Origin: an uncultured Pseudokineococcus sp. | Lineage (GTDB): Bacteria > Actinomycetota > Actinomycetes > Actinomycetales > Quadrisphaeraceae | Assembly: GCF_947495735.1 (NCBI RefSeq) | Contig: NZ_CANMAA010000001.1 | Coordinates: 434,001-498,000 of the forward strand | DNA: 64,000 nucleotides | Direction: 5' to 3' | Part shown: positions 4,032-40,071 of the stretch, piece by piece | Numbering within the stretch: position 1 is the first letter of the stretch | How the letters are laid out: each line of letters begins with the position of its first letter | Program-made: the position numbers and the translations under genes | The notes under the pieces: generated by a model | The model's database searches: none | What the model saw: only the letters and a program-made list of their open reading frames with translations | What the model was told of the DNA's origin: nothing

Positions 4032-4032
4032 C

Positions 4033-4991: not shown

Positions 4992-5160
4992 GCCCGCCGA
5001 GCCGGACGACGAGCCCGCCCCTGCCGCAGGGGGCGTGCGGAGCCCGGAGGAGACCGGCGCCCAGCGCCGGTCGACGGCTCGGACGAGACCAGCGGACGGG
5101 GCCCAGCCCCGCGACGAGTGCGCGGCCGACCTGCGGCGGGCGCGCGGAGAGCAGCAGACG

Positions 5161-5517: not shown

Positions 5518-5544
5518 GCAGCAGGGCCCCGGCCCGCACCGCTC

Positions 5545-5592
5545 CGACGCCCCCGCCCGCCCCGGTCCTGCCGGGTGCGGCCGGGGGCGTCG
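5545..5592 (+). terminator. Hairpin after rplS
   Basis: An 11-bp outer stem (CGACGCCCCCG at 5545-5555 pairing with 5582-5592) encloses a smaller CCGG-tetraloop-like hairpin. It begins 28 bases after the rplS stop. No U-run follows, like the other hairpins in this window. Confidence 0.6.
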
Positions 5593-5744
5593 TCGCGCCC
5601 GGGCCGGTGCGGCTCGCACGGTCGGGGGCGGACGGGGTGCGAGGCTGTCCCCGCACCGCGGGGGGTGCGCCCGAGGGGGCGGCGCAGCAGCACCGCGGTG
5701 CAGGGAACCGGGCCGCAGCGGCCACGACGGGCGGAGGACGTGCG

Positions 5745-6578: not shown

Positions 6579-6625
6579 GCGCGCGGCGGGTCGGCGGGGC
6601 CGCGCCGCGGCCGGGCGCGGGGCCG

Positions 6626-7420: not shown

Positions 7421-7725
7421 GCGCCGAGGACCTCGAGGACTACGAGACCGAGATGGAGCTCGCGCTGTACCGCGAGTACCGCGACGTCGTCGGTCTGTTC
7501 GCCTACGTCGTCGAGACGGAGCGGCGCTTCTACCTCGCCAACTCCGTCGACCTCGTGCCGCGGAGCACCGACGGCGAGGTGTGGTTCGAGCTCACGCTCA
7601 CCGACGCCTGGGTCTGGGACGTCTACCGCTCCGCCCGGTTCGTCAAGCAGGTGCGCGTGGTGACGTTCAAGGACGTCAACGTCGAGGAGCTGGCGAAGAA
7701 CGACCTCACCGTCCCCGAGACCTGA
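7417..7725 (+). CDS. DUF2469 family protein
   Basis: Protein of 102 residues, acidic at the N-terminus ([20 protein letters not shown]), belonging to the DUF2469 family found throughout actinobacteria just after rnhB. It has no membrane segment or known catalytic motif. [22 protein letters not shown] is the conserved core. The ATG overlaps the rnhB stop (ATGA), so it is translated from the same message. The function is unknown; conservation with rnhB and yraN suggests a role in nucleic acid metabolism, which is inference only. Confidence 0.92.
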
Positions 7726-7986
7726 GGCCGCCCCTCGCGACGACGAGGGCGCACGACCTGCGGGCGCCGCGCACGACACGGGACGACGAGCGCCCGCCCC
7801 ACCGGCGCGGCCGCCCGCTCCCCGACCTCCTCCTGCGGACCCGGCAGGACGTCAGCGCGCGTGCCGGGCGCCCGGTGTCCGCGCCGCGCGCACAGGCCGG
7901 GACCTGCGCGTCCGCGCCCACACCCCGACGACCGCGCCGTGCGCGGGCCCCGGCCGGGACCACGCTCCGGCCCGGAGGTGATCGGC

Positions 7987-8367
7987 GTGCGGACGACGGA
8001 CGCGGTGGGGCGGTACGGCGAGCAGGTGGCGGTGGCGCACCTGGAGGGGCTCGGCATGCGCGTGGTGGCGCGCAACTGGCGGTGCACCAGCCCGGTGCGC
8101 GGGGAGATCGACGTCGTGGCCCGCGACGGCGACGCGCTCGTGGCCGTGGAGGTCAAGACGCGGCGGTGCGGGCCGTCGGGCGCGCCCGGGGCGGGGCACC
8201 CCTTCGAGGCGGTGACGCCGGTCAAGGCGGCCCGGGTGCGCCGGCTCCTGGTGGCGTTCGCCGAGGCGACCGGGGAGCGCGCGGGAGGCCTGCGCGTGGA
8301 CGCGGTAGCGGTCCTGCGCCCCTCGGCCGGGCCGGCGCTCGTGGAGCACCTGCGCGGGGTGGCCTGA
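7987..8367 (+). CDS. YraN family (UPF0102) endonuclease-like protein
   Basis: Restriction-endonuclease-fold protein of 126 residues. The core has [36 protein letters not shown] and VAVEVKTRR; the latter two give the E...D...ExK catalytic pattern of the nuclease superfamily. GTG at 7987 is preferred because GGAGG lies nine bases upstream; GTG at 7978 is an in-frame alternative. The stop overlaps the ATG of the ComM-like gene. yraN-comM-dprA is a conserved trio tied to DNA uptake or processing. The 261-base gap before it shows no gene. Confidence 0.92.
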
Positions 8368-26563: not shown

Positions 26564-28525
26564 ATGACGACGCAGGGGTCCGACGGCGGAGCGACGCGGG
26601 GGACGGCGCGCACCGGGGTGGCCTCGGGCGGGGCCTGGGAGGCGGCGCACCGCGAGTCGCTGGAGGACCCGGAGGCCTTCTGGATGCGGGCCGCGCGCGA
26701 CGTCCGCTGGATCCGGCGCCCGACGTCCGCCCTCGACCCGGCCGCCGACGCCGCCGAGGGGTCGGCGCTGCCGCGCTGGTTCCGCGGCGCGACCCTCAGC
26801 ACGGCCTTCAACTGCCTCGACCGCCACGTCATCGCGGGCCGGGGGGAGCAGCCGGCGCTCGTGCACCACTCGGCGTACACGGGGGAGCGGTTGACGCTCA
26901 CCTACGCCGAGCTGCTCGACCACTCCGCCCGCCTCGCCGGGACCCTGCGGGAGCTCGGCGTCGGCAAGGGCGACCGCGTCGTCGTCTACCTGCCGATGGT
27001 CCCCGAGGCCGTCGTCGCGATGCTGGCCTGCGCCCGCATCGGCGCGGTCCACTCCGTCGTCTTCGGGGGCTTCGCGGCGGCCGAGCTCGCCGCGCGCATC
27101 GACGACGCGCAGCCGGTCGTCGTCCTCACCGCCTCGTGCGGCCTGGAGCCGACGCGCGTCGTGGAGTACATGCCGCTGCTCGAGGCGGCCCTGGCGCGCG
27201 CCGAGCACGCACCCGCCCACTGCGTCGTGCTGCAGCGGCCGCAGGCCCGGGCCGAGCTCGTGCCCGGCCGGGACCTGGACTGGCGCGAGGCCACGCGCCC
27301 GGGGGCCGCGCCGCCGGCCGAGTGCGTCGAGGTGGCCGCCACCGACCCCCTCTACGTGCTCCACACCTCGGGGACGACGGGGCGGCCCAAGGGCGTCGTG
27401 CGCGACCACGGCGGCCACGCGGTCGCGCTGACGTGGTCGGTGCCGAACCTCTTCGGCCTCGAGCCCGGGGACGTGGTCCTGACGGCCAGCGACGTCGGCT
27501 GGGTCGTCGGCCACTCCTACATCGTCTACGGACCCCTGCTCGCCGGGTGCACGACCGTCCTCTACGAGGGCAAGCCCGTGGGGACGCCCGACGCGGGGGC
27601 GCTGTGGCGCGCCGTCGCCGAGCACGGCGCCTCGGTGCTGCTCACCGCGCCGACGGCCGTCCGGGCGATCCGCGCCCAGGACCCCGACCTGGCGCTCGCC
27701 GCCGAGCACGACCTGTCCAGCCTGCAGGCGCTCTACCTGGCGGGGGAGCGGCTCGACCCGGACACCTGGGCGTGGGCGGGCGAGCACCTGGGCGTCCCGG
27801 TCGTCGACAACTGGTGGCAGACGGAGACCGGCTGGCCCATCGCCTGCTCCCCGCGCGGGCTCCAGGAGCTGCCGCTCAGGCCGGGCTCGCCGTCGGTGCC
27901 CTCGCCCGGCTACGACGTCCGCGTCCTCGACTCCGCGGGCCAGGAGGTGCCGCCCGGGGTCGAGGGGGCGCTCTGCCTCACGCTGCCGCTGCCGCCGGGG
28001 ACCCTCGCCGGGGTCTGGGGCGGGGACGAGGTGCTGCGGGCCTCCTCGCTGGACGCCCACCCGGGCTACTACGTCACCGGGGACGGCGGCTTCGTCGACG
28101 ACGACGGCTACGTCCACGTGCTCGGGCGCACCGACGACGTCATCAGCGTGGCCGGGCACCGGCTGTCCGCGGGCCAGCTCGAGGCCGCCGTGGTCGGGCA
28201 CCCCGACGTCGCCGAGTGCGCCGTCATCGGCGTCGCAGACCCCCTCAAGGGGCAGGAGCCGCGGGCGCTCGTCGTGCTCGCGGGCGGGACGACGACCTCG
28301 CCGCAGGACGTGGCCGCGCAGGTCGTCCAGCGGGTGCGCGAGGAGGTCGGCCCGTTCGCCGCCCTGCGCAGGGTCGACGTCGTCGCCGCCCTGCCGAAGA
28401 CGCGCTCCGGGAAGCTCCTGCGCAAGACGCTGCGCGAGATCGCCGACGGCGTCGACGCGGTGGTACCCAGCACCATCGAGGACCGCTCGGTGCTCGAGGA
28501 CCTGCGCCCGGTGCTGCGGGGCTGA
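26564..28525 (+). CDS. prpE: Propionyl/acetyl-CoA synthetase-like AMP-binding enzyme
   Basis: Acyl-CoA synthetase (AMP-forming) of 653 residues. The AMP-binding motif [35 protein letters not shown], the [28 protein letters not shown] hinge region and the acetylatable Lys in [14 protein letters not shown] are all present. [12 protein letters not shown] and [11 protein letters not shown] are more like propionyl-CoA synthetase PrpE than Acs, so activation of propionate or another short acid is likely. The ATG at 26564 is favoured (GAGG nine bases upstream); 26555 is an alternative. It is monocistronic as far as can be seen. Confidence 0.88.
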
Positions 28526-28693
28526 GCCCGGGGGCCTGCGGCGGTCGCCGGGGCGGGACGTCGACGGACGATGTCACCGATCTCTGTCACGGCAGACGCT
28601 GCTGGAAGGGAGCGCTCCCGCCCGCTCGGTGCCATCCTCCGAGCACGACGGGGAGCACCCCGGCAGTCGGAGACGGACAGAGCGGGGCACGAC

Positions 28694-28945
28694 ATGGCGG
28701 CAGGCGACGGCAGGGCCACCTCGGGCGCGGGGCTCGGGGGCGGGGGGACCGCGGCGGGCAGGGCCCCCGCGCGCACCCAGCGGTGGGGCGTGCTGGTCGG
28801 TGCGCTGGTGGGCCTCGTCTTCGGGCTCGTCTTCTTCAGCGGTGACGGCCGCTCGCTGCTCGTGACCGGCGCCCTCTGCGTCCTGTTCGCGATCGTCGGG
28901 GCGGCGATCGGCCACTACGCCGTGCGCGGGCGCGAGCGGTCCTAG
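28694..28945 (+). CDS. Small two-helix membrane protein, unknown function
   Basis: Protein of 83 residues with a Gly/Ala-rich N-terminus, two hydrophobic segments (WGVLVGALVGLVFGLVFF and SLLVTGALCVLFAIVGAAIG) and a basic C-terminus (RGRERS). No family is recognised. The ATG at 28694 is preferred; the frame is open upstream to an ATG at 28571, which would add 41 basic residues. It lies between prpE and an oxidoreductase gene, with a 168-base leader of slightly lower GC. Confidence 0.6.
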   Translation: MAAGDGRATSGAGLGGGGTAAGRAPARTQRWGVLVGALVGLVFGLVFFSGDGRSLLVTGALCVLFAIVGAAIGHYAVRGRERS

Positions 28946-29050
28946 CGGTGCGGAGCCGGCGGCCGGGACCGACCGCGGGCGCCGGCTCGCCCGAGCACGC
29001 CAGCGGCGGCGCCGGGCGGGTGGGGGCCGGAGGGCCTCCCGCAGGGTGCC

Positions 29051-30499
29051 GTGCTTGACGCGGTGGTCGTGGGGTCGGGTCCGAACGGGCTGGCCGCCGC
29101 GCTGGTCCTGGCCCGGGCCGGGCTCGACGTGGAGGTGCTGGAGGCCGCCCCGACGGCCGGTGGAAGCGCTCGGACCGCGGAGCTGACCCTCCCGGGCTTC
29201 CTCCACGACCGGGGCTCGGCGGTGCACCCGATGGCGCTCGCCTCGCCGTTCCTGGCGAGCGTCGACCTGGCGGGCCTGGGCGCGGAGCTGCTCCAGCCGG
29301 AGGTCGCCTACGCCCACCCCCTCGACGGGGGGAGAGCCGCACTGGCCGTGCGCGACCTCGAGTCGACCGCGGAGGGCCTGGGGACGGACGGAGCGGCGTG
29401 GCTCCGGGTGTTCCGGCCGCTCGTCGAGCGGTGGCGGGGCGTCGTCGCGCTCGCCCTGGGGGACATGCGCAGCACACCTCCTGACCTCGCCGCCGCGTGG
29501 CGCTTCGGCCTCGCGGTGCTGGAGCAGGCAGGCCCTGCGCGCGGGGTCCGGTTCCGCGGAGAGGCAGCACGGGGCCTTCTCGCCGGAGTCGCGGCGCACG
29601 CCGCCGCGAGGCCGCGCGGCGTGGGGCCCGCCGGCGTGGCCGTCCTGCTCGCCGCCCTGGCGCACGCGGTCGGGTGGCCCGTCCCGCGCGGGGGCTCCCA
29701 GACGATCTCGGACGCTCTCGTGGGAGAGCTGCTCCAGCGGGGAGGGCGACTGCTCGTCGACACCCGGGTCGAGCGCCTGGAGGAGCTGCCCGCCGCGCGC
29801 GCCGTCCTGCTCGACGTCAGCCCCCGGGGACTGCTCAGCATCGCCGGCCCGCGGCTCCCCTGGTCCTACGCCGCTTGGCTGCGCCGCTACCGGTACCGGG
29901 CGGGCGCGGCTCCCGTCCACTTCGCTCTCAGCGGGCCGGTGCCGTGGAGCGCCGCGGGCGTGGGAGCCGCGGGGACCGTCCACCTCGGAGGACCCCGCGA
30001 GCAGGTGGACGCCGCCGAGGGGGAGGTCGCGGTCGGTCGCCACGCCGACCGACCGTTCGTCCTGGTCTCCCAGCCGTCCGTGGTCGACCCCGGCCGCGCC
30101 CCCTCCGGCTCCCACGTCCTGTGGACCTACGCGCACGTCCCGCTGGGCTCTCCCGTGGACGTCTCCGCGCGGGTGCAGGCGCAGGTGGAGCGCTTCGCGC
30201 CGGGGTTCGGCGACCTGGTCCTGGCCCGCACGTCGATCTCGGCCGCGCAGCTGGAGCGCGAGAACGCCAACCTGGTCGGCGGGGACGTGACCGCGGGCGC
30301 GGCCACCCCCTGGCAGCTGCTCTTCCGCCCGGTGCCCCGCTGGGACCCCTACCGGACGCCGGTCGAGGGCGTGTACCTGTGCTCGGCCGCCACCTCGCCG
30401 GGACCGGGCGTGCACGGCATGAGCGGCGTGCACGCCGCGCGCCGGGTGCTGCGGCAGCGGTTCGGCATCCGGGTCGGGCTCGACGGCGGGCGGCGCTAG
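29051..30499 (+). CDS. Phytoene-desaturase-like FAD-dependent oxidoreductase
   Basis: NAD(P)/FAD oxidoreductase of 482 residues. The dinucleotide fold is DAVVVGSGPNGLAAALVLARAGLDVEVLEA, followed by GGSARTAEL and, at the C-terminus, GVYLCSAATSPGPGVHGMSG, typical of the CrtI-like family. Widespread actinobacterial relatives have no known substrate; no carotenoid genes are nearby. It starts with GTG after a G-rich stretch. It precedes a 592-base gap and then the regulator of the putative RiPP cluster, so a link to that cluster is possible but unproven. Confidence 0.85.
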   Translation: MLDAVVVGSGPNGLAAALVLARAGLDVEVLEAAPTAGGSARTAELTLPGFLHDRGSAVHPMALASPFLASVDLAGLGAELLQPEVAYAHPLDGGRAALAVRDLESTAEGLGTDGAAWLRVFRPLVERWRGVVALALGDMRSTPPDLAAAWRFGLAVLEQAGPARGVRFRGEAARGLLAGVAAHAAARPRGVGPAGVAVLLAALAHAVGWPVPRGGSQTISDALVGELLQRGGRLLVDTRVERLEELPAARAVLLDVSPRGLLSIAGPRLPWSYAAWLRRYRYRAGAAPVHFALSGPVPWSAAGVGAAGTVHLGGPREQVDAAEGEVAVGRHADRPFVLVSQPSVVDPGRAPSGSHVLWTYAHVPLGSPVDVSARVQAQVERFAPGFGDLVLARTSISAAQLERENANLVGGDVTAGAATPWQLLFRPVPRWDPYRTPVEGVYLCSAATSPGPGVHGMSGVHAARRVLRQRFGIRVGLDGGRR

Positions 30500-31091
30500 G
30501 CGTGCTGCCCGGGGACGTCGCGTCGACCTGGTGGTGGGTGGGACCCCGCCGGCGGATGGCGCAGGGGGTCGGTGGTGACCGAACCGGTGGGGGAGGCGGG
30601 CCGCGCGTCGCGTCGACCGGCGTCACCCTCGGTGTGACGGGCGGTGACCGGTCCGCCGCGATGGTGCGGTGGAGGCGATCCTCCTCGCCGTCGGTCCGCG
30701 GCCGGTCGGGGAGTCTCCTCAACCGCGATGCCGAGGTCGGCGCACGCGGCCGCCCCGGCCGGAGCCCTGCGGGCTGAGCCGTCGCCGGGCAGCACCCGCT
30801 CGACGAGGCCCCGCGGGCAGCGGACCGGGGACGCCCGCGCCGGACCCCGGCGGCGGTGAGCGCGGTCTCGCCGGCCGAGATCTCGGCGTGGGGACCCCCG
30901 GACGTGGTCGTCAGTGACGGACTGCAGGAGAGCGGTGCCCGTCCGGGCCCCGTGGTGCTCGGTCCGGACCTCGTCGGGGGTGGCGGCGCGGTCGCGGTGG
31001 CCCGGGGCGCTCAGAGGTGCTCGCCCGGTGGGCACGACGCGCTCGCACGCCCAGGTCGCGCTCACGTGACCGACGTCCCCGGGCGGTGCAG
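30500..31091. other. 592-base gap without a supported gene
   Basis: Frames here read as Arg/Pro/Gly-rich low-complexity peptides without recognised families, and codon use does not match the real genes. A small hairpin, CGTCAC/GTGACG, sits near 30620-30640. The gap separates the oxidoreductase gene from the convergent MerR-type regulator. It may be decayed DNA, but no gene remnant was identified. Confidence 0.4.
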
Positions 31092-32120
31092 CTACCGGGG
31101 TCCGGACACCGGCCCGGCCGCGGCGCCCCGGACGCCCGCGGAGGACGGCGGGCGCGGGCCCGCCCGGCGCCGCGGAGCAGCCGTCAGCCCGTCCACGGCG
31201 TCGCCGCCGGCGAGGGGCTCGTGCGGTGCCCGCCGCCCTCCGGCCGGGAGGTGCCCCAGGCCCGGACCGCGGACCTCGGGGAGCGCGGCGACCGCTGCCC
31301 GCTGAGCGGGCGCCACCACGGCCCCACCGGCGACGACCCACGGCAGGGGCGCCACCCCGGCGAGGAGGGCCTCGTCGGACGCGTGGCGCCGGATCGCCAG
31401 GACCATGGTGGTGGCGACGACCTCCTGGACCCCGCTGCGTCGGTCACCTCCCGCCGGCACGTGGGTGTCGATCCACCCCAGCACCTCCTTGGCCAGCGGG
31501 GAGAGCCCCTCCAGCAGCCGGCACAGGACGGCGGTCGCCGTCGTCTGGTCCGCGCCCAGCTCGACGAGGCGGGAGACGGCGCGCAGGGCCTCGGGTTCGA
31601 GGACCTCCCAGCAGCCGTCGACGCCGGCCCGCAAGACGCCGATGCGCTGCAGCACGTCGACGGCCGCCGGGCTGGTCACGTCGAGGCGCTCGAGGAGCCG
31701 CTGCTCGGGGGAGGCGTCCTCCGCAACGACGTCGGCCGCCGGGTCCCCCAGCGTCACCTGGATGGCCGCGAGGTTGAACCCGCGCCGCTGCATGAGCTGG
31801 ATGGCCCGGATCCGCTCGACGTGCGCGGCGCTGTACCGGGCGCACCGGTTGTGTCGGCTCGGCGGGGACAGGAGGCCGCGCGCCTGGTAGGCGCGCACGT
31901 TGCGCACCGACATGCCGACCAGCGCTGCGACCTCGGCGACCGTGTAGCCGTCGCAGCCGTCGGGGTCCAGCGGGCCGTCGACGACCGCGTCCAGCACTGG
32001 TGGCAGCCGGGTCGGGGCGTCCGGGCGGGCGGCGCGGGCCGGGGACCGGCGACCCCCGGACGACGGTGGTCCGGTCCCTCGCTCGCGACCAGCCCCGCCA
32101 GCGCCTGTCGACACGCTCAC
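31092..32120 (-). CDS. MerR-family transcriptional regulator
   Basis: Protein of 342 residues. A winged-helix MerR DNA-binding domain at about residues 60-125 contains YTVAEVAALVGMSVRNVRAYQARGLLSPPSRH and the conserved RYSAAHVERIRAIQLM...GFNLAAIQ. The N-terminal ~50 residues are Gly/Pro-rich. The C-terminal ~200 residues are helical and resemble no metal-binding tail, so a small-molecule or peptide effector is possible. GTG at 32120 follows GGGGGGACGC. It is divergent from the methyltransferase operon across 414 bases, which makes it the likely regulator of that operon. Confidence 0.85.
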   Translation of the reverse strand: MSVSTGAGGAGRERGTGPPSSGGRRSPARAARPDAPTRLPPVLDAVVDGPLDPDGCDGYTVAEVAALVGMSVRNVRAYQARGLLSPPSRHNRCARYSAAHVERIRAIQLMQRRGFNLAAIQVTLGDPAADVVAEDASPEQRLLERLDVTSPAAVDVLQRIGVLRAGVDGCWEVLEPEALRAVSRLVELGADQTTATAVLCRLLEGLSPLAKEVLGWIDTHVPAGGDRRSGVQEVVATTMVLAIRRHASDEALLAGVAPLPWVVAGGAVVAPAQRAAVAALPEVRGPGLGHLPAGGRRAPHEPLAGGDAVDGLTAAPRRRAGPRPPSSAGVRGAAAGPVSGPR

Positions 32121-32534
32121 GCGTCCCCCCGCCGCCGGTCGCAGCCCGACCGGCCGTGTTCGTCAGCCGCACCCCCGGCTTCCTGTCCGCAACGTACTCA
32201 GAAGGGGACCAAACGATCAAGAGATCACGAGATGGAGGAACGGTGGCGCGGTCCGCCGTGCCGGGGGGGGGCGGTGCGACACGGCGGTGGCCGAGCGGCG
32301 GCTCCGCTCGGTGGCACACCGGCGGCCCCGGGCCCGACGGTGACACCGACCGCTGGCACGCCAGTGCCGCAACCGCCGGCTCTCGTGGCATCGCGCCCGG
32401 GCTCTGGTCACCGACTCGCGGCTGCTGTTGCGTGAGCCGGACCCGGGCACCAGCCAGGTGCGGGGTGACGGGCCGGGCGGTGGCGTCGGCGAGGGGTCCG
32501 CGCCACGGGTCGCAGGAGCAGAAGAGGAGCGCAC
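32121..32534. promoter_or_regulatory. 414-base divergent control region of the RiPP cluster
   Basis: No gene is supported. The stretch 32185-32245 is clearly poorer in GC than its surroundings (GCAACGTACTCAGAAGG and AAACGATCAAGAGATCACG) and contains GATC-AAGA-GATC, making it the best place for promoter and MerR-operator elements. No exact -35/-10 pair was recognised. A run of G residues lies near 32264. The methyltransferase start is preceded by GAGGAG close to 32525. Confidence 0.45.
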
Positions 32535-33308
32535 GTGGTGGTCCAGGACCAGTCCACGCGGTACGGCGCCCAGTACGCCGGCGTCTACGACCTGATCTTC
32601 CAGCGGGACGCGGCTGCCGAGGAGACCGCGGACATGCTCTTCCGGCTCGCCGGCGGCGGTCGCCCGACGGTCGTCGAACTCGGCGTCGGCACCGGCCGGA
32701 TCGCGCTCCCGCTCGCTCGTCGGGGCGCCCGGGTCATCGGCGTCGACACCTCTCGGGAGCTCCTGGGGCTGGCCCGAGAGGCCGCTGAGCTGGACCAGCT
32801 CCCCGTCCAGCTGGTGCTCGCGGACATGCGCTCGTGGACCGCGGAGGTCCGGGCCGACCTCACGTACTGCGTGTGCGCCACGATCTCCATGCTCGCGACG
32901 GCGGCCGAGCAACTGCGCACCCTCGGGCGAGCCGTGGCGTCGACGCGTCCCGGGGCCCACGTCGTCGTGGAGACGCACAACCCCGCGTACGTCGCCGCGC
33001 TCCACGCCGACCGCGAGTCGGTCGACGTCCCCGTGCCGGTGAGCGGGCTGGTCGAGGGCATGGTCATGCACAGCCGAGCCCCCTCGCCCGATGGCCTCTG
33101 GCAGGTCACGAGCTCCTGGAGCGATGGATCGGAGCGTCTCTCGGCCGAGGAGTTCAGCCGGCTCACGACCCCTGATGACCTGGAGGCCCTCGCCCTCGAG
33201 GTGGGCCTGGTGCCCGTAGCCCGGTCGGGGGACTTCCGCGGCGGGCCGGTCGAGCCGACGAGCGCCACCTACGTCAGCACCTTCCGAGTGGGAGAGGACA
33301 TCCGATGA
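32535..33308 (+). CDS. SAM-dependent methyltransferase of the RiPP cluster (CypM-like role)
   Basis: Class I SAM methyltransferase of 257 residues. Motif I is VVELGVGTGRIALPLA, followed by VIGVDTSRELLGLAR and LADMRSW. The N-terminal YAGVYDLIFQRD helix fits small-molecule and peptide N-methyltransferases. As first gene of the operon with an exporter and short peptides, it most likely methylates the peptide N-terminus, as CypM does in cypemycin (alpha-N,N-dimethylation); this is inference from context. GTG start after GAGGAGCGCAC. Its stop overlaps the exporter ATG (ATGA). Confidence 0.85.
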   Translation: MVVQDQSTRYGAQYAGVYDLIFQRDAAAEETADMLFRLAGGGRPTVVELGVGTGRIALPLARRGARVIGVDTSRELLGLAREAAELDQLPVQLVLADMRSWTAEVRADLTYCVCATISMLATAAEQLRTLGRAVASTRPGAHVVVETHNPAYVAALHADRESVDVPVPVSGLVEGMVMHSRAPSPDGLWQVTSSWSDGSERLSAEEFSRLTTPDDLEALALEVGLVPVARSGDFRGGPVEPTSATYVSTFRVGEDIR

Positions 33309-35266
33309 GGACCACGTCGGCGGGCGAGCGCTCGAGGACGAGCAGGCGCGCGCTGCGGCGCGCCCGCGACGGGACGGCACCGCGCACAGGTCTGCAGGCG
33401 CTGCGACAGCTGCTGGTGCACGTGCGGCCGGTGCGGGCGGTCCTGCTCGCCGGGCTCCTGCTGCTGGTCGTCTCGACGCTCGTGGCCCTGGTGCAGCCGC
33501 TGGCGGCCCAGGCGATCCTCGACGGGCTCACGGCCGGGGGGGAGCTGAGAGGGCCCGTGCTCCTCCTCGTCGCGGTGGTGCTGCTGTCCGCCGTGACGCA
33601 GGGCTTCGGGAACTACCTGGTCCTGCGCGGTGCCGAAGACGTGGTCCTCGGCTCGCGCCGGCGTCTCGTGTCCCAGATCTTCGACCTGTCCCTGGGCGGC
33701 ATGCGCGGTCAGTCACCAGGGGATCTCATGTCGCGCGTGACGTCGGACACGGCGCTCATACGCCAGGTCTGCGTGTCCTCGATGGTGCAGTTCGTCACGG
33801 GGTCGGTGGCCCTGGTCGGCGCCGTCGTGCTCATGCTGACGCTCGACGTCGTGCTCCTCGCCGTGACGGTCGCCGTCGTGCTCGTCCCCGCCGGGCTGCT
33901 GGGCGTGATCATGCCGCGCGTGCGACGAGCGGCGCGCGAGACGCAGGAGGCCGTCGGGCGGATGGGCAGCGAGCTCGAGCGCGTGCTCGGGGCCTTCACG
34001 ACGCTGAAGGCGTCCGCAGCCGAGGACGAGGAGGACGAGCGCTTCCGGGCGACCAGCCGGCGCGCCCGCGACGCCGGCGTGCGGTCGTCGCTGTGGACGG
34101 CGCTCGCCGCCATGACCTCGGCACTGTCCGTCCAGGCGGCCTTCCTCGTGGTGCTGGGCGTCGGCGCGCTCCGCGTCCAGTCGGGGGCCATGACCGTCCC
34201 CGTCCTCATCGCCTTCCTGCTGTACGCCATGCAGCTGTCCGCACCGGTCGTGCAGCTGACCGCGGCGGTCTCGTCCTTCCAGACGGGGCGCGCTGCGCTC
34301 GAGCGCGTCGCCGAGGTCGAGAGCATGGAGCGGGAGATGGACGTCGAGGACTTCCGCCCGGCCGACGGCGGCGCCGTCGCCGAGCTCCCCGTCGCCGAGC
34401 GCGCGCCGGGCTCGCTCGCGGCCCTCGGCCCCATCTCCTGGAGTCCCGCGGCGGAGCTGCACGACGTGACCTTCCGCTACCCGGACGCCGAGGAGCCAGC
34501 GCTGCGAGACCTGTCGGTCACCATCCCCGAGCGCGGCACGACGGGCGTCGTCGGACCCTCCGGCTCGGGGAAGTCGAGCATCCTCCGGCTGCTCAAGGGG
34601 TTCTTCCCGGTCGAGGCCGGGCAGGTCGTCGTCGGGGGCAGGGACCTCGTCGAGTGGGACCTCACGGAGCTGCGCCAGCACACCGCCTACGTCGAGCAGG
34701 AGACGCCCGTCCTCGCCGGGTCGCTGCGCGACAACCTCGAGTACGGCCTCGAGGACGTCGACGACGAGCGGCTGCGGGCCGTCCTCGTCACCGTCCGCCT
34801 CCACGAGCGGTTCGCCGCTCCGGGCGCGCTGGACGCCGAGCTCGGCCACCGCGGGGCCTCGCTGTCCGGCGGGGAGCGGCAGCGCATCGCCATCGCCCGC
34901 GCCATCCTGCGCGAGCCGAGGCTCCTCCTCCTCGACGAGGCGACGTCGCAGCTGGACGCCCGCACGGAGGCGGTGATGCGCGACGTCGTGGCCGACCTCG
35001 CCCGGCACATGTCGGTCGTCGTGGTCGCGCACCGCCTCTCGACGGTGGTCGACGCCGAGCAGATCGTCGTGCTGGAGGCCGGCCGGCAGCGAGCGGTCGG
35101 CCGCCACCAGGAGCTCGTGGAGCGCGACGAGGTCTACCGGCGGCTCGTGCAGGAGCAGACGCTCCCGGCGAGCGCGGGGCCCTCGCTCCTGGGGCCGCCC
35201 CCGCCCGCACCACCGGGTTCCACCGCCACCGCCACATCCGTCCCCTCGTCCGTGGAGGCCCCGTGA
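33305..35266 (+). CDS. ABC transporter, fused permease-ATPase (peptide exporter)
   Basis: Half-transporter of 653 residues. An Arg-rich N-terminus is followed by about six transmembrane helices (residues ~44-290) and an ATPase domain with Walker A GPSGSGKSS (~416), signature LSGGERQR (~520), Walker B LLLLDEATSQLD (~540) and the H-loop VVVAHRLS (~572). No C39 peptidase domain is present, so leader removal must be done elsewhere. It overlaps the methyltransferase at the start and the hydrolase fusion at the end (GTGA). In this context it likely exports the mature peptide, as CypT-type transporters do. Confidence 0.9.
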   Translation: MRTTSAGERSRTSRRALRRARDGTAPRTGLQALRQLLVHVRPVRAVLLAGLLLLVVSTLVALVQPLAAQAILDGLTAGGELRGPVLLLVAVVLLSAVTQGFGNYLVLRGAEDVVLGSRRRLVSQIFDLSLGGMRGQSPGDLMSRVTSDTALIRQVCVSSMVQFVTGSVALVGAVVLMLTLDVVLLAVTVAVVLVPAGLLGVIMPRVRRAARETQEAVGRMGSELERVLGAFTTLKASAAEDEEDERFRATSRRARDAGVRSSLWTALAAMTSALSVQAAFLVVLGVGALRVQSGAMTVPVLIAFLLYAMQLSAPVVQLTAAVSSFQTGRAALERVAEVESMEREMDVEDFRPADGGAVAELPVAERAPGSLAALGPISWSPAAELHDVTFRYPDAEEPALRDLSVTIPERGTTGVVGPSGSGKSSILRLLKGFFPVEAGQVVVGGRDLVEWDLTELRQHTAYVEQETPVLAGSLRDNLEYGLEDVDDERLRAVLVTVRLHERFAAPGALDAELGHRGASLSGGERQRIAIARAILREPRLLLLDEATSQLDARTEAVMRDVVADLARHMSVVVVAHRLSTVVDAEQIVVLEAGRQRAVGRHQELVERDEVYRRLVQEQTLPASAGPSLLGPPPPAPPGSTATATSVPSSVEAP

Positions 35267-37125
35267 TCCCTGTCCGAGCGCTGTCGTCCCTGGTGCGTGC
35301 GGCGACGGCACCCCCGGGCGCGACCCGCGGCGGCGCCCTCGCCGCGACCGAGCGCATCTCCGCCGTCACCCATCTGCTCATCAGCAGCGAGCACCTCGCC
35401 CGGCCCGGTCTGCGCCAGGCGTCCGGGCTCAACGACTGGTCGCTGTCCGGCCTCGGGCTCGAGCAGCGGTCACCGCTGCTGGCAAGGGTGATGCGCGTCG
35501 TCGCGGACGACCGGGTCACCACGCTGCTCAGCGCCGCCCGGGCCGCCTCCGCGCTCGTGCTGCTGAGCCCCGTCCGCGACCCGAGGCTGCGGTGCGGCGC
35601 GGACGCGGTCGCCGCCGGCGCAGCGGTCCTGCTCCACCCCCGTCTGCGCTACGGCACCGACGGGTCCGACCAGGTGAGCGTCCTGGTGCAGGTGGCAGCC
35701 GCGACCGCGCGCGCGGCAGGGGCTCGCACCAGGGTCGTCGACGCGGCCCTGTGGGGCGTGGCCCTGCAGGCGACCCTCTCCTACGCGGCGTCGGGCTGGG
35801 TGAAGCTGGCGGGCGCGTCGTGGCGCAGCGGCGAAGCCCTGCCGGGGGTCATGCGCACGGCGACCTACGGCAACCCGGACGTCTGGCGGCTGGCGCGGTC
35901 GTACCCCGCCGTCGCGCGCGTCCTGGGCGCCGGCATGCTCGCCCTGGAGTGCACCTTCCCCCTGGCGTACGTGGCCGGCGGGCGCCTCGCCCGCCCCTAC
36001 GTGGCGTCCGCCGCGTGCTTCCACCTGACCGTCGCGCGCATCATGGGGCTCGGGCGCTTCGTCCCCTCGTTCCTGTCCATGCACCCGGCGGTCCTCTACA
36101 CCGCCCGGCGCCGGTCGGGCACCGGTTCGCCGGTCGACCCCCGCCGCGACGACGCCGTCCCGGTCGCCGCGGCGGTGGCGGTGGCCGCTGTCGCCGCGCG
36201 CGGCCTGGCGGTCCGCCTCGCGGACGAGCGGCTGCTGGACCGTCCGCGTCCCGGCGAGCAGCGGTTCACCACCCGCAGCGGCAACGAGCTCCGGTACGTG
36301 GAGCAGGGGCCGACGGGGACGGAGGTCGTCTTCATCCTCGAGAACGGCATGGCGTCGACCACGGAGCACTGGTCCTGGGTGGTCGACGACCTGCGGCGCG
36401 ACCACGCCGTCGTCACCTACGACCGGGCCGGTTACGGGGCCTCGTCCTGGCGCTGCGGCACCGTCCGCTCGCTGGCGGGCATCGCCGACGAGTCGCGCCA
36501 GCTGGTCGAGCACGTCGCCCGGGGCCGACGCGTCGTCCTGGTGGGCCATTCCCTCGGTGGCTACCTGATGATGCTGGCGTCCCGGGGCGTGGCCGCCGAC
36601 GTCGTCGGACTGGGTCTGGTGGACACCAGCCACCCCGACGAGCTGGTGCTGTCCGAGAAGCAGGCCCGTGGCGCGCGACACCTCGACGAGGTGCTCCCGG
36701 TCATGGCGCACTCCCTGGACCTGGGATGGGGCGCACTCCTGCGACCACCGGACTTCCTTAACCGGCTCCCGGCGGCCGCGCGGCGCCGGGCCGTGGCCCA
36801 GTACCGCACCAGCCGTCTGTGGCGGGCCGGGCGCCGCGAGTGGGCGGCGACCCGGGTCGAGTTCGAGGTCTCCCCTGGCCTGCCCCCGCTGACCGCACCG
36901 GTGCAGGTGGTCAGCGCGGCGAGGACGGTCGCGACCGACGGCGTGCAGGAGGACCTCTACCGGCGCATCCTCGCTGCCGCGCCGGCCGGCGGCTTCCACG
37001 TCGTGCCCGGCTGCGACCACGACAGCATCCTCAGCGACCGCACTGCCGCGCGTCAGGTCGCGGAGGTCCTCCGGGCGTCGGTGGCGGGGCACGTGCGGGC
37101 GTGCCTCCAGGAGGTGCCGGCATGA
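35263..37125 (+). CDS. HTTM-like membrane domain fused to alpha/beta hydrolase (linaridin LinH-like)
   Basis: Fusion of 620 residues. Residues ~1-320 contain several membrane segments with GWVKLAGASWRSGEALPGVMRT, NPDVWRLARSYP and FHLTVARIMGLGRF, a pattern like HTTM/vitamin-K-dependent-carboxylase-like proteins. Residues ~330-620 form an alpha/beta hydrolase with LVGHSLGGYLMM (nucleophile Ser near 427) and VPGCDHDSIL (His near 585). Combined membrane/hydrolase proteins are, from memory, a hallmark of linaridin clusters (CypH, LegH), where they have been tied to peptide maturation including epimerisation. GTG start overlaps the exporter stop; GGAGG is upstream. The exact reaction here is unknown. 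Confidence 0.78.
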   Translation: MIPVRALSSLVRAATAPPGATRGGALAATERISAVTHLLISSEHLARPGLRQASGLNDWSLSGLGLEQRSPLLARVMRVVADDRVTTLLSAARAASALVLLSPVRDPRLRCGADAVAAGAAVLLHPRLRYGTDGSDQVSVLVQVAAATARAAGARTRVVDAALWGVALQATLSYAASGWVKLAGASWRSGEALPGVMRTATYGNPDVWRLARSYPAVARVLGAGMLALECTFPLAYVAGGRLARPYVASAACFHLTVARIMGLGRFVPSFLSMHPAVLYTARRRSGTGSPVDPRRDDAVPVAAAVAVAAVAARGLAVRLADERLLDRPRPGEQRFTTRSGNELRYVEQGPTGTEVVFILENGMASTTEHWSWVVDDLRRDHAVVTYDRAGYGASSWRCGTVRSLAGIADESRQLVEHVARGRRVVLVGHSLGGYLMMLASRGVAADVVGLGLVDTSHPDELVLSEKQARGARHLDEVLPVMAHSLDLGWGALLRPPDFLNRLPAAARRRAVAQYRTSRLWRAGRREWAATRVEFEVSPGLPPLTAPVQVVSAARTVATDGVQEDLYRRILAAAPAGGFHVVPGCDHDSILSDRTAARQVAEVLRASVAGHVRACLQEVPA

Positions 37126-37859
37126 GCGCTGCGTCGGTCCTCGGCCGGGGCGCCGAGGTCGTGGTCCCGGTGGCCGTGGCCGGGTGGTGCGCCGTCACCG
37201 TCGTCAGCCAGCACCCGAACCGGGCCTTCGACCGGTTCCGCGGTGGCGTCCTCACGAGCGCCCTGCTCCCGAACTGGCGGTTCTTCGCGCCGGAGCCCGC
37301 GATGCACGACTTCCGGCTGCTGCACCGGTGCCTCCGGGAGGACGGCACGCAGACCACGTGGGAGGACACCCACGACATCGCCCCGAGGACGTGGCAGAAC
37401 GCCTTCTGGTTCCCCGAGCGCCGTCGCGACAAGGCCCTCATCGACCTGTGCAACGAGTTGCTCACGCACGTCCAGCAGATGAGCGCCGAGGACCTCCCGG
37501 GCACGATCGCCTACCAGCTGCTCCGACGTTTCGTCGCCCGCGAGGTGCGGGCGCGCGAGGCGCTGCAACCCGGCGGGGCGCCGGTCGTGGGGCTCCAGTT
37601 CCTCGTGGTCCGCGACGCCGGGCACGACGAGGAGCCCGACCCCGAGTACCTGCTGGTCTCCCGGTTCGAGGAGATCGCCGCCACCGCCCCGGGCTCCGCG
37701 GCAGCGAGGACCCGCGTCGCCGAGCGGGCGTCGTCGCCCGCCGGGCCGGTACCGCGCACGACGTCCCGACCGCGGTCCGCCGCGGCGGGGACCACCAGCT
37801 CGGCCACGGACGAGCGGCGCGCCGGTGGCGCCCGGCCGTCCCGGGTCGTCACCGCGTGA
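37122..37859 (+). CDS. DUF5819-like small membrane protein of the RiPP cluster
   Basis: Protein of 245 residues with one N-terminal membrane segment (VVVPVAVAGWCAVTVVS) and the motif LLPNWRFFAPEPAMHDFRLLHRC, which resembles the NWxFFAPxP hallmark of DUF5819-type proteins often encoded beside HTTM proteins. The last ~65 residues are Ser/Arg/Ala-rich and likely disordered. The ATG overlaps the stop of the hydrolase fusion (ATGA), indicating an obligate partner. No catalytic residues are evident. It is followed after 51 bases by the first precursor peptide. Confidence 0.75.
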   Translation: MSAASVLGRGAEVVVPVAVAGWCAVTVVSQHPNRAFDRFRGGVLTSALLPNWRFFAPEPAMHDFRLLHRCLREDGTQTTWEDTHDIAPRTWQNAFWFPERRRDKALIDLCNELLTHVQQMSAEDLPGTIAYQLLRRFVAREVRAREALQPGGAPVVGLQFLVVRDAGHDEEPDPEYLLVSRFEEIAATAPGSAAARTRVAERASSPAGPVPRTTSRPRSAAAGTTSSATDERRAGGARPSRVVTA

Positions 37860-37910
37860 GGGGCGCCAGGGCCCACCACGAGCAGCACCCACCACAGGAG
37901 GAGAGAGCAC

Positions 37911-38096
37911 ATGGACGCACTACCCCGACGCGTCGCAGGCGCGGGCGAGATCTGCGGTGACATGACGACGGGCGCGGTCCGCGTCGTCGTCCTCGAGGCG
38001 GCACCCGTCATGGCCACGCCCGCGATCGCCGCCGGTGTGGGCGTGGTGGGCAGCGCCGCGGTCGGGTACTTCGCCGAGGAAGCGGGGGACAGCTGA
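37911..38096 (+). CDS. Putative linaridin-like precursor peptide 1
   Basis: Peptide of 61 residues with a strong AGGAGGAGAG ribosome site before its ATG. It has a leader-like front (MDALPRRVAGAGEICGD), VVVLEAAPVMATPAIAAG in the middle and a Gly/Val/Ala-rich end. P32-V-M-A-T-P37 fits the PxxxTP motif of linaridin precursors. In cypemycin (from memory) the cut is at PAM|ATPATP, which by analogy predicts a 27-residue core starting at Ala35. The core has no Cys and ends in EEAGDS. It aligns with peptide 3 over RRV-GA, GD, VVVL, APV and TPA. The stop overlaps the next ATG (TGATG). Confidence 0.8.
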   Translation: MDALPRRVAGAGEICGDMTTGAVRVVVLEAAPVMATPAIAAGVGVVGSAAVGYFAEEAGDS

Positions 38097-38281
38097 TGGC
38101 CCGCACGCGCGTCGAGCGGGTCTCGCTCGACGCCCGGGTGGCCGAGATCGGCGTGGACGCCGGCTCGGTCACGGTCTTCCCAGACGTGACCCCCGTGACC
38201 GCCACGCCGGGCATCGTCATCACGGGGGCCATGGTCAGCGCGGCCGTCGCCGGCTCGGAGATCGGCAAGAACGCCGACTGA
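38096..38281 (+). CDS. Putative linaridin-like precursor peptide 2
   Basis: Peptide of 61 residues whose ATG overlaps the previous stop (TGATG), so it is translationally coupled and made with peptide 1. It carries VTVFPDVTPVTATPGIVITG; P33-V-T-A-T-P38 is the same PxxxTP element. The predicted core from Ala36 has 26 residues, with Thr at two places, no Cys and a charged end (EIGKNAD). The leader differs from peptides 1 and 3 (VSLDARVAEIGVDAGS) but keeps the spacing to PxxxTP. A 17-bp hairpin lies just downstream. Confidence 0.78.
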   Translation: MARTRVERVSLDARVAEIGVDAGSVTVFPDVTPVTATPGIVITGAMVSAAVAGSEIGKNAD

Positions 38282-38297
38282 GGACGTTGCGGCCCGT

Positions 38298-38337
38298 CCG
38301 GGTGCGACCCGACGGATGCTCGTCGGGTCGCACCCGG
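38298..38337 (+). terminator. 17-bp hairpin between precursors 2 and 3
   Basis: Perfect 17-bp stem CCGGGTGCGACCCGACG (38298-38314), 6-nt loop, right arm 38321-38337. It starts 17 bases after the stop of peptide 2. Standing before the third precursor, it may partly terminate the operon and protect the abundant precursor message from 3' decay. Confidence 0.75.
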
Positions 38338-38407
38338 TCGGACTCGCCGCGGTGAGGAGGACGGGGGCCTCGGCTGCCCGTGGTGGCCCATCAGCGAGGA
38401 GGACGGG

Positions 38408-38581
38408 ATGGAAGCGCGCGAGCGCCGCGTCCGCGGTGCGTCCGCGGTCAGCGGCGACCTGTCGGAGAAGACGTGCCACGTCGTGGTGCTGGACACGGCA
38501 CCGGTCACGTCGACGCCGGCGGTCACCGTCGGCACGGTCGTCGGTGCGGTCGACGTCGTCGCCCAGGTCGGCGGCGGCTGA
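38408..38581 (+). CDS. Putative linaridin-like precursor peptide 3
   Basis: Peptide of 57 residues with GAGGAGG six bases before the ATG. It has RRVRGASAVSGDLSEKTC, then HVVVLDTAPVTSTPAVTVG. P32-V-T-S-T-P37 matches PxxxTP. The predicted core from Ser35 has 23 residues, with three Thr, hydrophobic Val-rich content, no Cys and a GGG end. The alignment with peptide 1 (RRV-GA---GD, VVVL--APV--TPA) shows they are paralogues. It is separated from peptide 2 by a hairpin and followed by another. Confidence 0.76.
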   Translation: MEARERRVRGASAVSGDLSEKTCHVVVLDTAPVTSTPAVTVGTVVGAVDVVAQVGGG

Positions 38582-38592
38582 GCACGACGTCC

Positions 38593-38631
38593 GGGTGCGG
38601 CACGGCGACCGGCGGTCGTCGTGCCGCACCC
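38593..38631 (+). terminator. 18-bp hairpin after precursor 3
   Basis: Arms 38593-38610 and 38614-38631, one G-U pair in 18, loop GGC, starting 12 bases after the stop. The stem base (GGGTGCGGCACG) resembles that of the hairpin between precursors 2 and 3, as if duplicated with the gene. It also lies before the 3' end of the minus-strand gene and can serve both directions. Confidence 0.72.
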
Positions 38632-38671
38632 GTGGCACGTCCGGCACCCGCGGCCGGTCGCCCGGCCCAGG

Positions 38672-39379
38672 TCAGGCGGGGGCCAGGGACGCGACGAGGA
38701 GGCCGACGATGACCGTGTTGAAGACGAGGGCGACGAGCGAGTGGGCCGTGACGACGCGGCGCAGCTGCGGGGTGACCACCGCCACGTCCGTCGTGCCGAG
38801 CGTCGTGGACACGGCGCCGGCGAAGTACACGAAGTCGGCGAAGCGCGGGGCGTCGTCCTGCGGGAAGTGCAGCCCGCCCTCGAGGTGGGTCCGGGTCGCG
38901 TAGTCGGCGGCGTACGTGAGCGTGAGGGTCACCCAGGCGAGCACGACGGCCGTGGCCGACACCGCTGTCGCCGCGGCCGAGTCCGCTGCGCCTCCCAGCG
39001 CGCGGGCCGCCGGCAGGTACACGGCGGTGGCCACGAGCACCACGGGGCAGACGAGGACGGCCATGATCGTCCCGGCCCTCGGGACGAGCACCCACCGCAC
39101 GACCCAGCCCCCCCGCGCGGGCCGTGCGCGCAGGCACTCCTCCGGGAAGCGCCAGAACGCGGCACCGGTCAGGCCGACGTAGGCGAGGAGGAAGACGGAG
39201 AAGCCGGCGAGGGCGCGGGTCGCTCCCTCGGCCACCTCGTCGACCGCCAGCTCCGGCAGCCAGGAGAGGCCACCGCCGCCGTAGACGAGCGCCCAGACCA
39301 GGATCGAGAGGTAGTAGCGCCCGCTCTCGCGGCCCACCAGTCGGGGGAACCACCGCGCCCCCGCCGCTCCTGCGACCAC
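38672..39379 (-). CDS. DUF1345-type integral membrane protein (copy 2)
   Basis: Protein of 235 residues with about five or six hydrophobic helices. The DUF1345 hallmark is FADFVYFAGAVSTTLGTTDVAVVTPQLRRVVTAHSLVALVFNTVIVGLLV, where TLGTTDV recalls a pore-like P-loop before the last helix. DUF1345 proteins are ion-channel-like in topology but have no proven function. GTG at 39379 is the only fitting start, eight bases after the upstream copy's stop. Both copies point away from the precursor genes and are probably unrelated to them. Confidence 0.78.
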   Translation of the reverse strand: MVAGAAGARWFPRLVGRESGRYYLSILVWALVYGGGGLSWLPELAVDEVAEGATRALAGFSVFLLAYVGLTGAAFWRFPEECLRARPARGGWVVRWVLVPRAGTIMAVLVCPVVLVATAVYLPAARALGGAADSAAATAVSATAVVLAWVTLTLTYAADYATRTHLEGGLHFPQDDAPRFADFVYFAGAVSTTLGTTDVAVVTPQLRRVVTAHSLVALVFNTVIVGLLVASLAPA

Positions 39380-39387
39380 GGCGGGGG

Positions 39388-40071
39388 TCAGACGGCCAGC
39401 GAGGTCACGAGCAGGGCGAGGACCACCGTGCTGAAGGTGAACGCCAGGACGCTGTGCACGAGGACGACCCCGCGGCTGCCCCGGTCGCGGACCGCGACGT
39501 CCGTGGTGCCGAGCGTGGCGGAGACGGCGACCGCCAGGTAGAGGTGGTCGGTGAACCCGGACCCGCGTCGTCCGGGCACGTCGAGCCCGCCGACGTGCTG
39601 CTCGCGACGCGCGTACACCACCGCGAAGCTGACCGTCATGGTGATCCAGGCGGCGACGACGAGGAGCACCGCGCACGCACCGCTGACCAGCTGCGCCAGC
39701 GGCGAGGGCAGCCCACCCGCGTAGGGCACGTACCAGAGGGCCACCGCGAGGGCGATCATCGCGGCCAGCGAGCCGGGGACGAGGTCGCGGCGCGTGGGGG
39801 TCCTCATCCGCCCGGTGATGTCCTTCGACGCGTTGTCCTCGCGGTGCCTGCTGAAGGCGCGCACCGTCAGCGCGCTGAAGACCAGCATGGTCACGGCGTA
39901 GCAGAGCACCCAGCGGTAGGTGACGAGCGGCACCTCCGACGCGTCGTCGCGCAGGGGCTGCAGGGCGACCGCGAGCGCGAGCCCGCTCCCCGCGGCGGCG
40001 TACCACCGGGCGACGTCGGTGTGCCACCACGTCGGCGGCTGGCGCGAGGCGACGCGCTGCGCTGCGACCAC
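39388..40071 (-). CDS. DUF1345-type integral membrane protein (copy 1)
   Basis: Protein of 227 residues, paralogous to the downstream gene. It has the same layout and FTDHLYLAVAVSATLGTTDVAVRDRGSRGVVLVHSVLAFTFSTVVLALLV near the C-terminus. The N-terminal half has YRWVLCYAVTMLVFSALTVRAF and a central charged loop. GTG at 40071 is used; the ribosome site is weak. The tandem pair may form a hetero-oligomer. A G-rich stretch of GGGGGCACC units (40085-40120) separates it from the ABC transporter operon. Confidence 0.8.
   Translation of the reverse strand: MVAAQRVASRQPPTWWHTDVARWYAAAGSGLALAVALQPLRDDASEVPLVTYRWVLCYAVTMLVFSALTVRAFSRHREDNASKDITGRMRTPTRRDLVPGSLAAMIALAVALWYVPYAGGLPSPLAQLVSGACAVLLVVAAWITMTVSFAVVYARREQHVGGLDVPGRRGSGFTDHLYLAVAVSATLGTTDVAVRDRGSRGVVLVHSVLAFTFSTVVLALLVTSLAV

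What the first reader, a model, noticed from the sequence alone, without database searches (positions are those of the whole stretch)
32535..38631. Linaridin-like RiPP gene cluster with three precursor peptides
A methyltransferase, an ABC exporter, a membrane/alpha-beta-hydrolase fusion and a DUF5819-like protein overlap in one operon. Three peptides of 57-61 aa with a shared P-x-x-x-T-P element follow. Linaridins (cypemycin, legonaridin) are, from established knowledge, made by N-terminal methyltransferases, CypH/LegH-type hydrolase-like membrane proteins and ABC exporters, with PxxxTP at the leader/core border. The set here is smaller than described clusters, so it may be a minimal or new subgroup.
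Basis: partly seen in the sequence, partly recalled or inferred. Interest (0 to 1): 0.88.

Follow-up and report, generated by a model that had tools for sequence, protein, structure and literature searches.

The report
Linaridin-type peptide cluster, threonine-poor variant
This stretch of an actinobacterial genome holds a full set of genes for making three small modified peptides of the linaridin antibiotic family, but of a variety whose peptides hold few of the residues that give known linaridins their hallmark chemistry.

Summary
Methyltransferase (M), ABC exporter (T), HTTM-alpha/beta-hydrolase fusion (H) and DUF5819-like protein (L) overlap by 4 bases each, and three PxxxTP peptides follow. 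A precursor profile built without the window ranks them first, second and third among its six-frame ORFs (E 2e-7, 2.4e-5, 0.01; next 0.41). The linaridin reading holds for the enzymes: H, L and M match a cypemycin-type cluster, and with T and F a linaridin cluster of Streptomyces sp. CT34, the legonaridin producer. The cluster is not minimal: F, a FAD oxidoreductase 53% identical to CT34's, lies upstream at 29051-30499. The precursors differ: no curated linaridin precursor model matches them, and the cores are Ala/Gly/Val-rich and Ser/Thr-poor. In 68 loci (window included), 124 cores hold 6.7% Ser+Thr, against 21-24% in four bona fide linaridins; 10 of 109 distinct cores have none. So dehydrobutyrine, the compound-level hallmark, cannot be their shared feature. 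Most likely H/L epimerise (and partly dehydrate) the core, M dimethylates its N terminus, T exports it; F's role is unknown. New variant of a known kind; key linaridin papers were not readable, so earlier description is possible.

The parts
29051..30499 (+). F: FAD-dependent, phytoene-desaturase/CrtO-like oxidoreductase, 482 aa; part of the set although separated from M by a MerR gene
   Evidence: NAD_binding_8/Amino_oxidase, CrtO/CrtI-like; 53% identical over 470 aa to the FAD oxidoreductase of the CT34 linaridin cluster (L108), 62% to that of L022; an F hit over 100 bits lies in 67 of 92 loci examined, 60 of them with all of H, L, M, T, F
31092..32120 (-). MerR-family regulator, divergent from M; possible regulator of the cluster (inferred from position only)
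   Evidence: PF13411 2.4e-17 for the stretch 31444-32120
32535..33308 (+). M: SAM-dependent methyltransferase, 257 aa; predicted alpha-N-dimethylation of the core, as CypM does
   Evidence: Methyltransf_25 2.9e-13; 35% identical to L108 M (E 5e-36) and 37% to L109 M; profile hit to the methyltransferase of a cypemycin-type cluster 1.5e-23
33305..35266 (+). T: ABC exporter (membrane + ATPase), 653 aa; no C39 peptidase domain among its Pfam hits
   Evidence: ABC_membrane 1.4e-37, ABC_tran 4e-29; 36% identical to L108 T, E 1.6e-103
35263..37125 (+). H: LinH-like HTTM membrane domain fused to alpha/beta hydrolase, 620 aa; Ser430/Asp454/His586 and HTTM Lys181/His254 conserved
   Evidence: Profile hit to the CypH-type ORF of L019 4e-67; tblastn to L019 33% E 1e-35, and to the split HTTM and hydrolase halves of L108/L109; conservation; model pLDDT 91.9; hydrolase domain Z 25-28 to solved hydrolases
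37122..37859 (+). L: LinL-like, DUF5819-like protein, 245 aa, with PNWRFFAPEPAMHD
   Evidence: DUF5819 below cut-off; 29% to L108 L E 9e-14, 32% to L019 L E 2e-9; alignment of 11
37911..38096 (+). P1: precursor peptide, 61 aa; leader ends PVMATP, core AIAAGVGVVGSAAVGYFAEEAGDS (no Thr, 2 Ser); its end resembles Kocuria and Ilumatobacter precursors (AEEA.D)
   Evidence: leave-window-out profile E 2e-7; ggaggag before the start; relatives
38096..38281 (+). P2: precursor peptide, 61 aa; PVTATP, core GIVITGAMVSAAVAGSEIGKNAD (1 Thr, 2 Ser)
   Evidence: leave-window-out profile E 2.4e-5; GC3 0.97
38282..38345 (+). Very stable hairpin between P2 and P3; possible terminator or attenuator (inferred; no T run, and the consensus scan lists no terminator)
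   Evidence: fold -47.4 kcal/mol, z -5.4, 0 of 200 shuffles as stable
38408..38581 (+). P3: precursor peptide, 57 aa; PVTSTP, core AVTVGTVVGAVDVVAQVGGG (2 Thr, no Ser)
   Evidence: leave-window-out profile E 0.01, third of the window ORFs; gaggagg before the start
38582..38650 (+). Very stable hairpin after P3; possible end of the transcript (inferred)
   Evidence: fold -51.3 kcal/mol, z -4.6, 0 of 200 shuffles as stable

Best explanation
A linaridin-type RiPP cluster. Three precursors each have a leader ending in PVxxTP and a hydrophobic Ala/Gly/Val-rich core. The membrane proteins H (LinH: HTTM + alpha/beta hydrolase) and L (LinL) act together on the core. Because some cores of this group have nothing to dehydrate and most have very little, their shared reaction is most likely epimerisation of L- to D-residues, with dehydration of the few Ser/Thr as a side or partial reaction. 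A protease not recognised in the cluster removes the leader after TP, M dimethylates the new N-terminal Ala/Gly, and T exports the peptides, which act as a narrow-spectrum bacteriocin, perhaps together. F acts on the peptide redox-wise in an unknown way. Shown here: gene set, homology of H, L, M, T, F to bona fide linaridin clusters, precursor homology, Ser/Thr-poverty. Inferred: every chemical step, cleavage site, activity.
For: H, L and M profiles hit a cypemycin-type cluster whose precursor passes NF033752 (98 bits, cut-off 35). H, L, M, T and F hit a CT34 cluster whose precursor passes NF033402 (112 bits, cut-off 35); [quoted passage not shown] A precursor profile without the window finds P1-P3 first. 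60 of 92 loci examined have all five enzyme families. Ser+Thr in cores is 6.7% pooled against 21-24% in four bona fide linaridins; 10 of 109 distinct cores have neither. LinH is cited as an alpha/beta-hydrolase epimerase beside BotH (PMC12661438, passage). grmL is reported indispensable for grisemycin and a possible epimerase, and type A linaridins hold several D-residues (PMC10373908, passages). The hydrolase triad and HTTM Lys181 are conserved. Corynaridin is cut at PxxxTP (PMC9927463, section).
Against: No chemistry was observed. No curated linaridin precursor model matches P1-P3 at E up to 10, though HMMER's filters drop most matches above 0.1. In corynaridin, homologues of these families are suspected of dehydrating Thr, and all eight Ser/Thr are dehydrated (PMC9927463), so dehydration may be their main work and could occur on the 2, 3 and 2 Ser/Thr of P1-P3. 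My precursor search missed real precursors (a second one in L093, L053 and L005, and others), so no locus is firmly shown to lack Ser/Thr in all its peptides; L080 is the best candidate. The window's precursors include a pair more alike than any of the three is to an outside one, so 'acting together' is weak for this window. Expression is unknown.
Confidence: 0.62

Rival explanations
1. An ordinary linaridin with few Thr: H/L dehydrate the available Thr/Ser to Dhb/Dha, M dimethylates the N terminus, and epimerisation is minor or absent.
For: Corynaridin, from a cluster with the same H/L families, is dehydrated at 7 Thr and 1 Ser (PMC9927463); P2 and P3 have 1 and 2 Thr, P1 has 2 Ser.
Against: P1 has no Thr; 21 of 124 cores in the group have no Thr and 10 have neither Ser nor Thr, yet their loci keep H and L.
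Confidence: 0.27
2. A pathway that left the linaridins: leader, exporter and H/L are shared, but F (a desaturase-like FAD enzyme) does the defining chemistry, for example desaturating or reducing core residues.
For: F is found in 67 of 92 loci and resembles CrtI/CrtO enzymes.
Against: F is also in the CT34 and S. noursei clusters with Thr-rich precursors, so it does not mark the Thr-poor group; 25 of 92 loci show no F over 100 bits, some of them on short contigs.
Confidence: 0.06
3. A daptide cluster (C-terminal Thr turned into a dimethylated amine).
For: Best NCBIfam hit of M is daptide_MTase, 57.8 bits against a cut-off of 175; several short hydrophobic precursors.
Against: None of P1-P3 ends in Thr (ends are DS, AD, GG); none of the nine genes scanned hits an aminotransferase or alcohol-dehydrogenase model over its cut-off; daptides need these and an RRE protein (PMC10036551, passages). 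RRE domains were not searched for as such.
Confidence: 0.01
4. A decayed or silent cluster, or peptides that are not translated.
For: Only this genome of the four held for its genus has the full-length H; no sigma-70 consensus promoter found in 28500-39500.
Against: All frames are open, codon-position GC is normal, ribosome-binding-like sites precede P1 and P3; precursor conservation.
Confidence: 0.04

Closest known systems
Legonaridin-type linaridin clusters: Streptomyces sp. CT34 (L108) and S. noursei (L109)
   Same: Same five enzyme families T, F, M, H, L; PxxxTP precursor
   Different: H is split there into a hydrolase and an HTTM ORF with the precursor between L and the HTTM ORF; one Thr-rich precursor found (7 and 5 Thr); window H is fused, three precursors with 0, 1 and 2 Thr
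   Same: Fused HTTM-hydrolase, L, methyltransferase; PxxxTP
   Different: Its precursor ends in Cys; window cores have no Cys; no F hit in L019
Corynaridin (Corynebacterium lactis, PMC9927463)
   Same: LinL, HTTM protein, alpha/beta hydrolase, ABC exporter, PxxxTP (paper)
   Different: No methyltransferase, separate HTTM and hydrolase genes, an SDR gene, 7 Thr in the C-terminal part (paper); its proteins were not compared here
Fused-H group in Streptomyces, Micromonospora, Nesterenkonia, Ilumatobacter, Kocuria and others, S. scabiei 87.22 (L070) among them
   Same: Fused H, L, in 60 of 92 loci examined also M, T, F; PVxxTP precursors, Ser/Thr-poor Ala/Gly/Val-rich cores, two or more in 45 of 68 loci
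   Different: Window order is M-T-H-L-P; in many others the precursors lie before H and H-L-M-T-F follows

Membership tests
Linaridin cluster (gene level) | LinL homologue (the marker used to find clusters, PMC9927463) | tested here: met
   tblastn of window L: L109 E 1.8e-14, L108 8.8e-14, L019 2.3e-9; profile 4.7e-33 to L108
Linaridin cluster (gene level) | LinH / LinG+LinE: HTTM domain and alpha/beta hydrolase | tested here: met
   tblastn L019 1.3e-35; L108 HTTM 3.9e-32, hydrolase 2.2e-16
Linaridin cluster (gene level) | Precursor with PxxxTP at the leader/core border | tested here: met
   PVMATP, PVTATP, PVTSTP; homologous to precursors of related loci; cleavage itself not testable
Linaridin cluster (gene level) | Methyltransferase and ABC exporter (usual, not universal) | tested here: met
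   M 5e-36 and T 1.6e-103 to L108
Linaridin compound (chemical level) | Dehydrobutyrine from Thr in the product | tested here: inconclusive
   P1 core has no Thr, so no Dhb is possible there; P2 has 1 and P3 has 2 Thr; product not observed
Linaridin compound (chemical level) | N-terminal dimethylation; D-residues | not testable with these tools
   needs mass spectrometry and chiral analysis
NCBIfam linaridin precursor subfamilies NF033402, NF033403, NF033752 | Score over the curated cut-off | tested here: not met
   P1-P3 show none of these families at E up to 10; eight precursors of relatives scanned gave at best 20.3 bits against 35, three or more gave nothing
Type A linaridin | C-terminal Cys (AviCys) | tested here: not met
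   cores end DS, AD, GG and hold no Cys
Type B linaridin | SDR gene in the cluster (PMC9927463) | tested here: not met
   none of the nine genes scanned at 29051-38581 hits an SDR family over its cut-off; whether L108 has one was not checked
Type B linaridin | FAD oxidoreductase as found here in the CT34 cluster (not a published criterion) | tested here: met
   F 53% to L108 F, E 1e-136; but window H groups outside the legonaridin-type HTTM rows, so I do not file it as type B
Daptide | C-terminal Thr in the precursor | tested here: not met
   precursor ends; requirement in PMC10036551

The most novel reading that the evidence does not exclude
In this clade LinH/LinL work chiefly as a peptide epimerase on Ser/Thr-poor, Ala/Gly/Val-rich cores, so the products are several co-made, D-residue-rich, membrane-spanning peptides with little or no dehydrobutyrine: a linaridin-derived class that the chemical definition of linaridins excludes. 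Natural Ser/Thr-free substrates would separate the two reactions ascribed to LinH/LinL.
Probability: 0.42. Interest if true: 0.75.

Novelty: new variant of a known kind. Interest (0 to 1): 0.57.

Why it matters
LinH/LinL families have been linked to dehydration (PMC9927463, passages) and to epimerisation (PMC12661438, PMC10373908, passages). A clade that keeps both proteins while some of its substrates have no residue to dehydrate offers natural substrates to tell the two reactions apart, and points to a broad set of hydrophobic, possibly D-amino-acid-rich peptides in actinobacteria. It also hints, below the curated cut-off, that Pfam DUF5819 (unknown function) is kin to LinL.

Tried and rejected
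Daptide reading: rejected (no C-terminal Thr, partner enzymes not seen). Minimal cluster: rejected (F found upstream). Holin hit of P1 in PHROGs (E 0.021) and DUF3188 hit of P1 (E 0.025): taken as chance from a hydrophobic peptide. HTTM domain against solved structures by sequence profile: three chance-level hits, no carboxylase listed. Fold search of the whole H model was filled by the hydrolase domain, so the HTTM part is untested. I considered that invariant Lys181 of the HTTM domain answers to the catalytic Lys218 of vitamin-K carboxylase (role from PMC9146348, passages); no alignment to that enzyme was made, so it is only a lead. Single-sequence fold of H: useless (pLDDT 37.9). Loci with no Thr in any detected core were L044, L053, L080, L093; for L093 and L053 the profile then showed a further precursor, so I make no locus-wide claim for them. 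Rows dropped before the counts: two spurious L039 ORFs, L019 and L020 (used as controls), L043 (same contig as L005). Of the four control cores one is type A and three are legonaridin-type and close to each other, so they are not four independent controls. Searches for print: (listings) showed no paper whose title or shown abstract describes a Thr-poor or multi-precursor linaridin group; three main linaridin papers (Georgiou 2020, Xue 2023, Xiao 2022) are not held and Mo 2017 was not looked up, so prior description cannot be excluded.
Full report
What is there. In window order on the + strand: F, a FAD oxidoreductase (29051-30499); then, after a MerR gene on the other strand (31092-32120), M (32535-33308), T (33305-35266), H (35263-37125), L (37122-37859), P1 (37911-38096), P2 (38096-38281), P3 (38408-38581). 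M, T, H and L overlap by four bases each. Two very stable hairpins lie after P2 and after P3 (z -5.4 and -4.6).

Is it more than chance. I collected PxxxTP precursors from related loci, left the window out, built a profile from 108 of them and searched the six-frame ORFs of the window. P1, P2 and P3 came first, second and third (E 2e-7, 2.4e-5, 0.01); the next ORF had E 0.41. Codon-position GC fits coding sequence.

Relation to bona fide linaridins. Profiles built from the window and its relatives hit genes beside it: H 4e-67, L 8e-18, M 1.5e-23. The genome of Streptomyces sp. [quoted passage not shown] One of them (L108) has T, F, M, a split H and L and a precursor ending PTMITP-LATLATPEATPVGFAATSATAAAVNMITHDVTRH that passes NF033402 at 112 bits. 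That L108 is the legonaridin locus itself is inferred from strain and precursor. Single-sequence tblastn of the window proteins to L108: F 53%, T 36%, M 35%, H 33% (HTTM) and 26% (hydrolase), L 29%, with E from 1e-136 to 9e-14.

Rarity near home. With window L as query, 4 of 149 relatives (own genome included) and 5 of 198 genomes of the order matched at E 0.001 or better; beyond the own genome only one (Nesterenkonia, 5e-35) and one weaker (4.5e-9) are convincing. Within the genus only the window genome of 4 has the full-length H; the other three show only generic hydrolase-domain matches.

The group. Window H matched 17 of 72,556 plasmid records, 8 of them over at least 80% of its length. 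In the genome collection 173 of 195 pattern-matched stretches encode relatives, of which the tool kept the best 80; this favours window-like H. Of 92 loci examined (window, 10 plasmid or genome loci, two controls, 79 of the 80; L043 dropped as the same contig as L005), 60 have hits to all of H, L, M, T, F; hits anywhere in the locus were counted, so a few T hits may be other exporters. 71 of 92 gave at least one motif-and-filter precursor, the two controls and L039 (spurious) included; 21 gave none, several of which do have precursor-like ORFs with a changed motif.

Cores. After dropping controls and the two spurious L039 ORFs, 124 cores from 68 loci remain: 21 have no Thr, 45 one, 46 two, 12 three or more; pooled Ser+Thr 6.7%. 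The four controls have 20.6-23.5%; 1 of 124 reaches the lowest control. Of 109 distinct cores, 20 have no Thr and 10 neither Ser nor Thr; Ala, Gly and Val make up 62%. 45 of 68 loci have two or more precursors. In 18 of 28 non-redundant multi-precursor loci each precursor is more like one of another locus than the locus's own most similar pair, as for conserved pairs; the window is not among the 18. P1 has visible relatives in the Kocuria plasmid L012 and in Ilumatobacter L093, which share the AEEA.D end (seen by eye). The counts are lower bounds because the filter lost real precursors (for example in L005, L093, L053).

Place of H. In a quick tree of 93 HTTM domains the window joins Ilumatobacter, the Kocuria plasmid and Curtobacterium (SH-aLRT 96). 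The three legonaridin-type rows and the type A row lie outside the other 89 (99), but long branches, the window's among them, are flagged and the root was my choice.

How it may work. H was modelled at pLDDT 91.9; residues 324-614 align with solved alpha/beta hydrolases at Z 25-28. Ser430, Asp454 and His586 are invariant in 9 of 9 aligned H proteins including the cypemycin type and at least 90% conserved in 58; HTTM Lys181 and His254 are invariant in all three alignments. Passages name LinH as an epimerase (PMC12661438) and grmL as a possible one (PMC10373908), while corynaridin shows full dehydration and its H/L homologues are suspected of it (PMC9927463, sections and passages). Since some cores have nothing to dehydrate, epimerisation is the better guess for the shared reaction. 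This is inference.

Known or new. Genome mining already labels such loci: a cryptic linaridin cluster is listed for S. scabiei 87-22 just after the concanamycin cluster (PMC8914351, passages), probably L070; I did not match coordinates. So this is a variant of a known kind, not a new kind.

Noticed in passing
L014 (S. atratus plasmid) 1266-8310 and L015 (Streptomyces NBC_00158 plasmid) 165-7992: H (split) and L sit beside class I lanthipeptide dehydratase and LanC genes, hinting that the H/L pair also serves lanthipeptides.
   Followed up: no
L008 5679-12474 and L094 (Tsukamurella): Precursor-like ORF + H + L without M, T or F hits; in L008 followed by alcohol dehydrogenase, proline-racemase-family and SDR genes; the precursor lacks the TP of the motif.
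   Followed up: partly
window 38282-38345 and 38582-38650: Two exceptionally stable GC-rich hairpins bracket P3, perhaps setting its expression apart from P1/P2.
   Followed up: partly
   Followed up: no
L037 (Streptomyces sp. L-9-10) 7806-8860: Five consecutive precursor-like ORFs, in four of which the TP of PxxxTP is lost, with only H and L recognised.
   Followed up: no
L061, L067, L070, L075, L076, L080, L087 (S. scabiei and relatives): A distinct precursor type with PTLGTP and a long Ala-rich core starting RI or RV; in L080 the core has no Ser, Thr or Cys.
   Followed up: partly
window 38672-40071, - strand: Membrane-protein-like reading frames that share an LGTTDV element (by eye), not analysed.
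   Followed up: no
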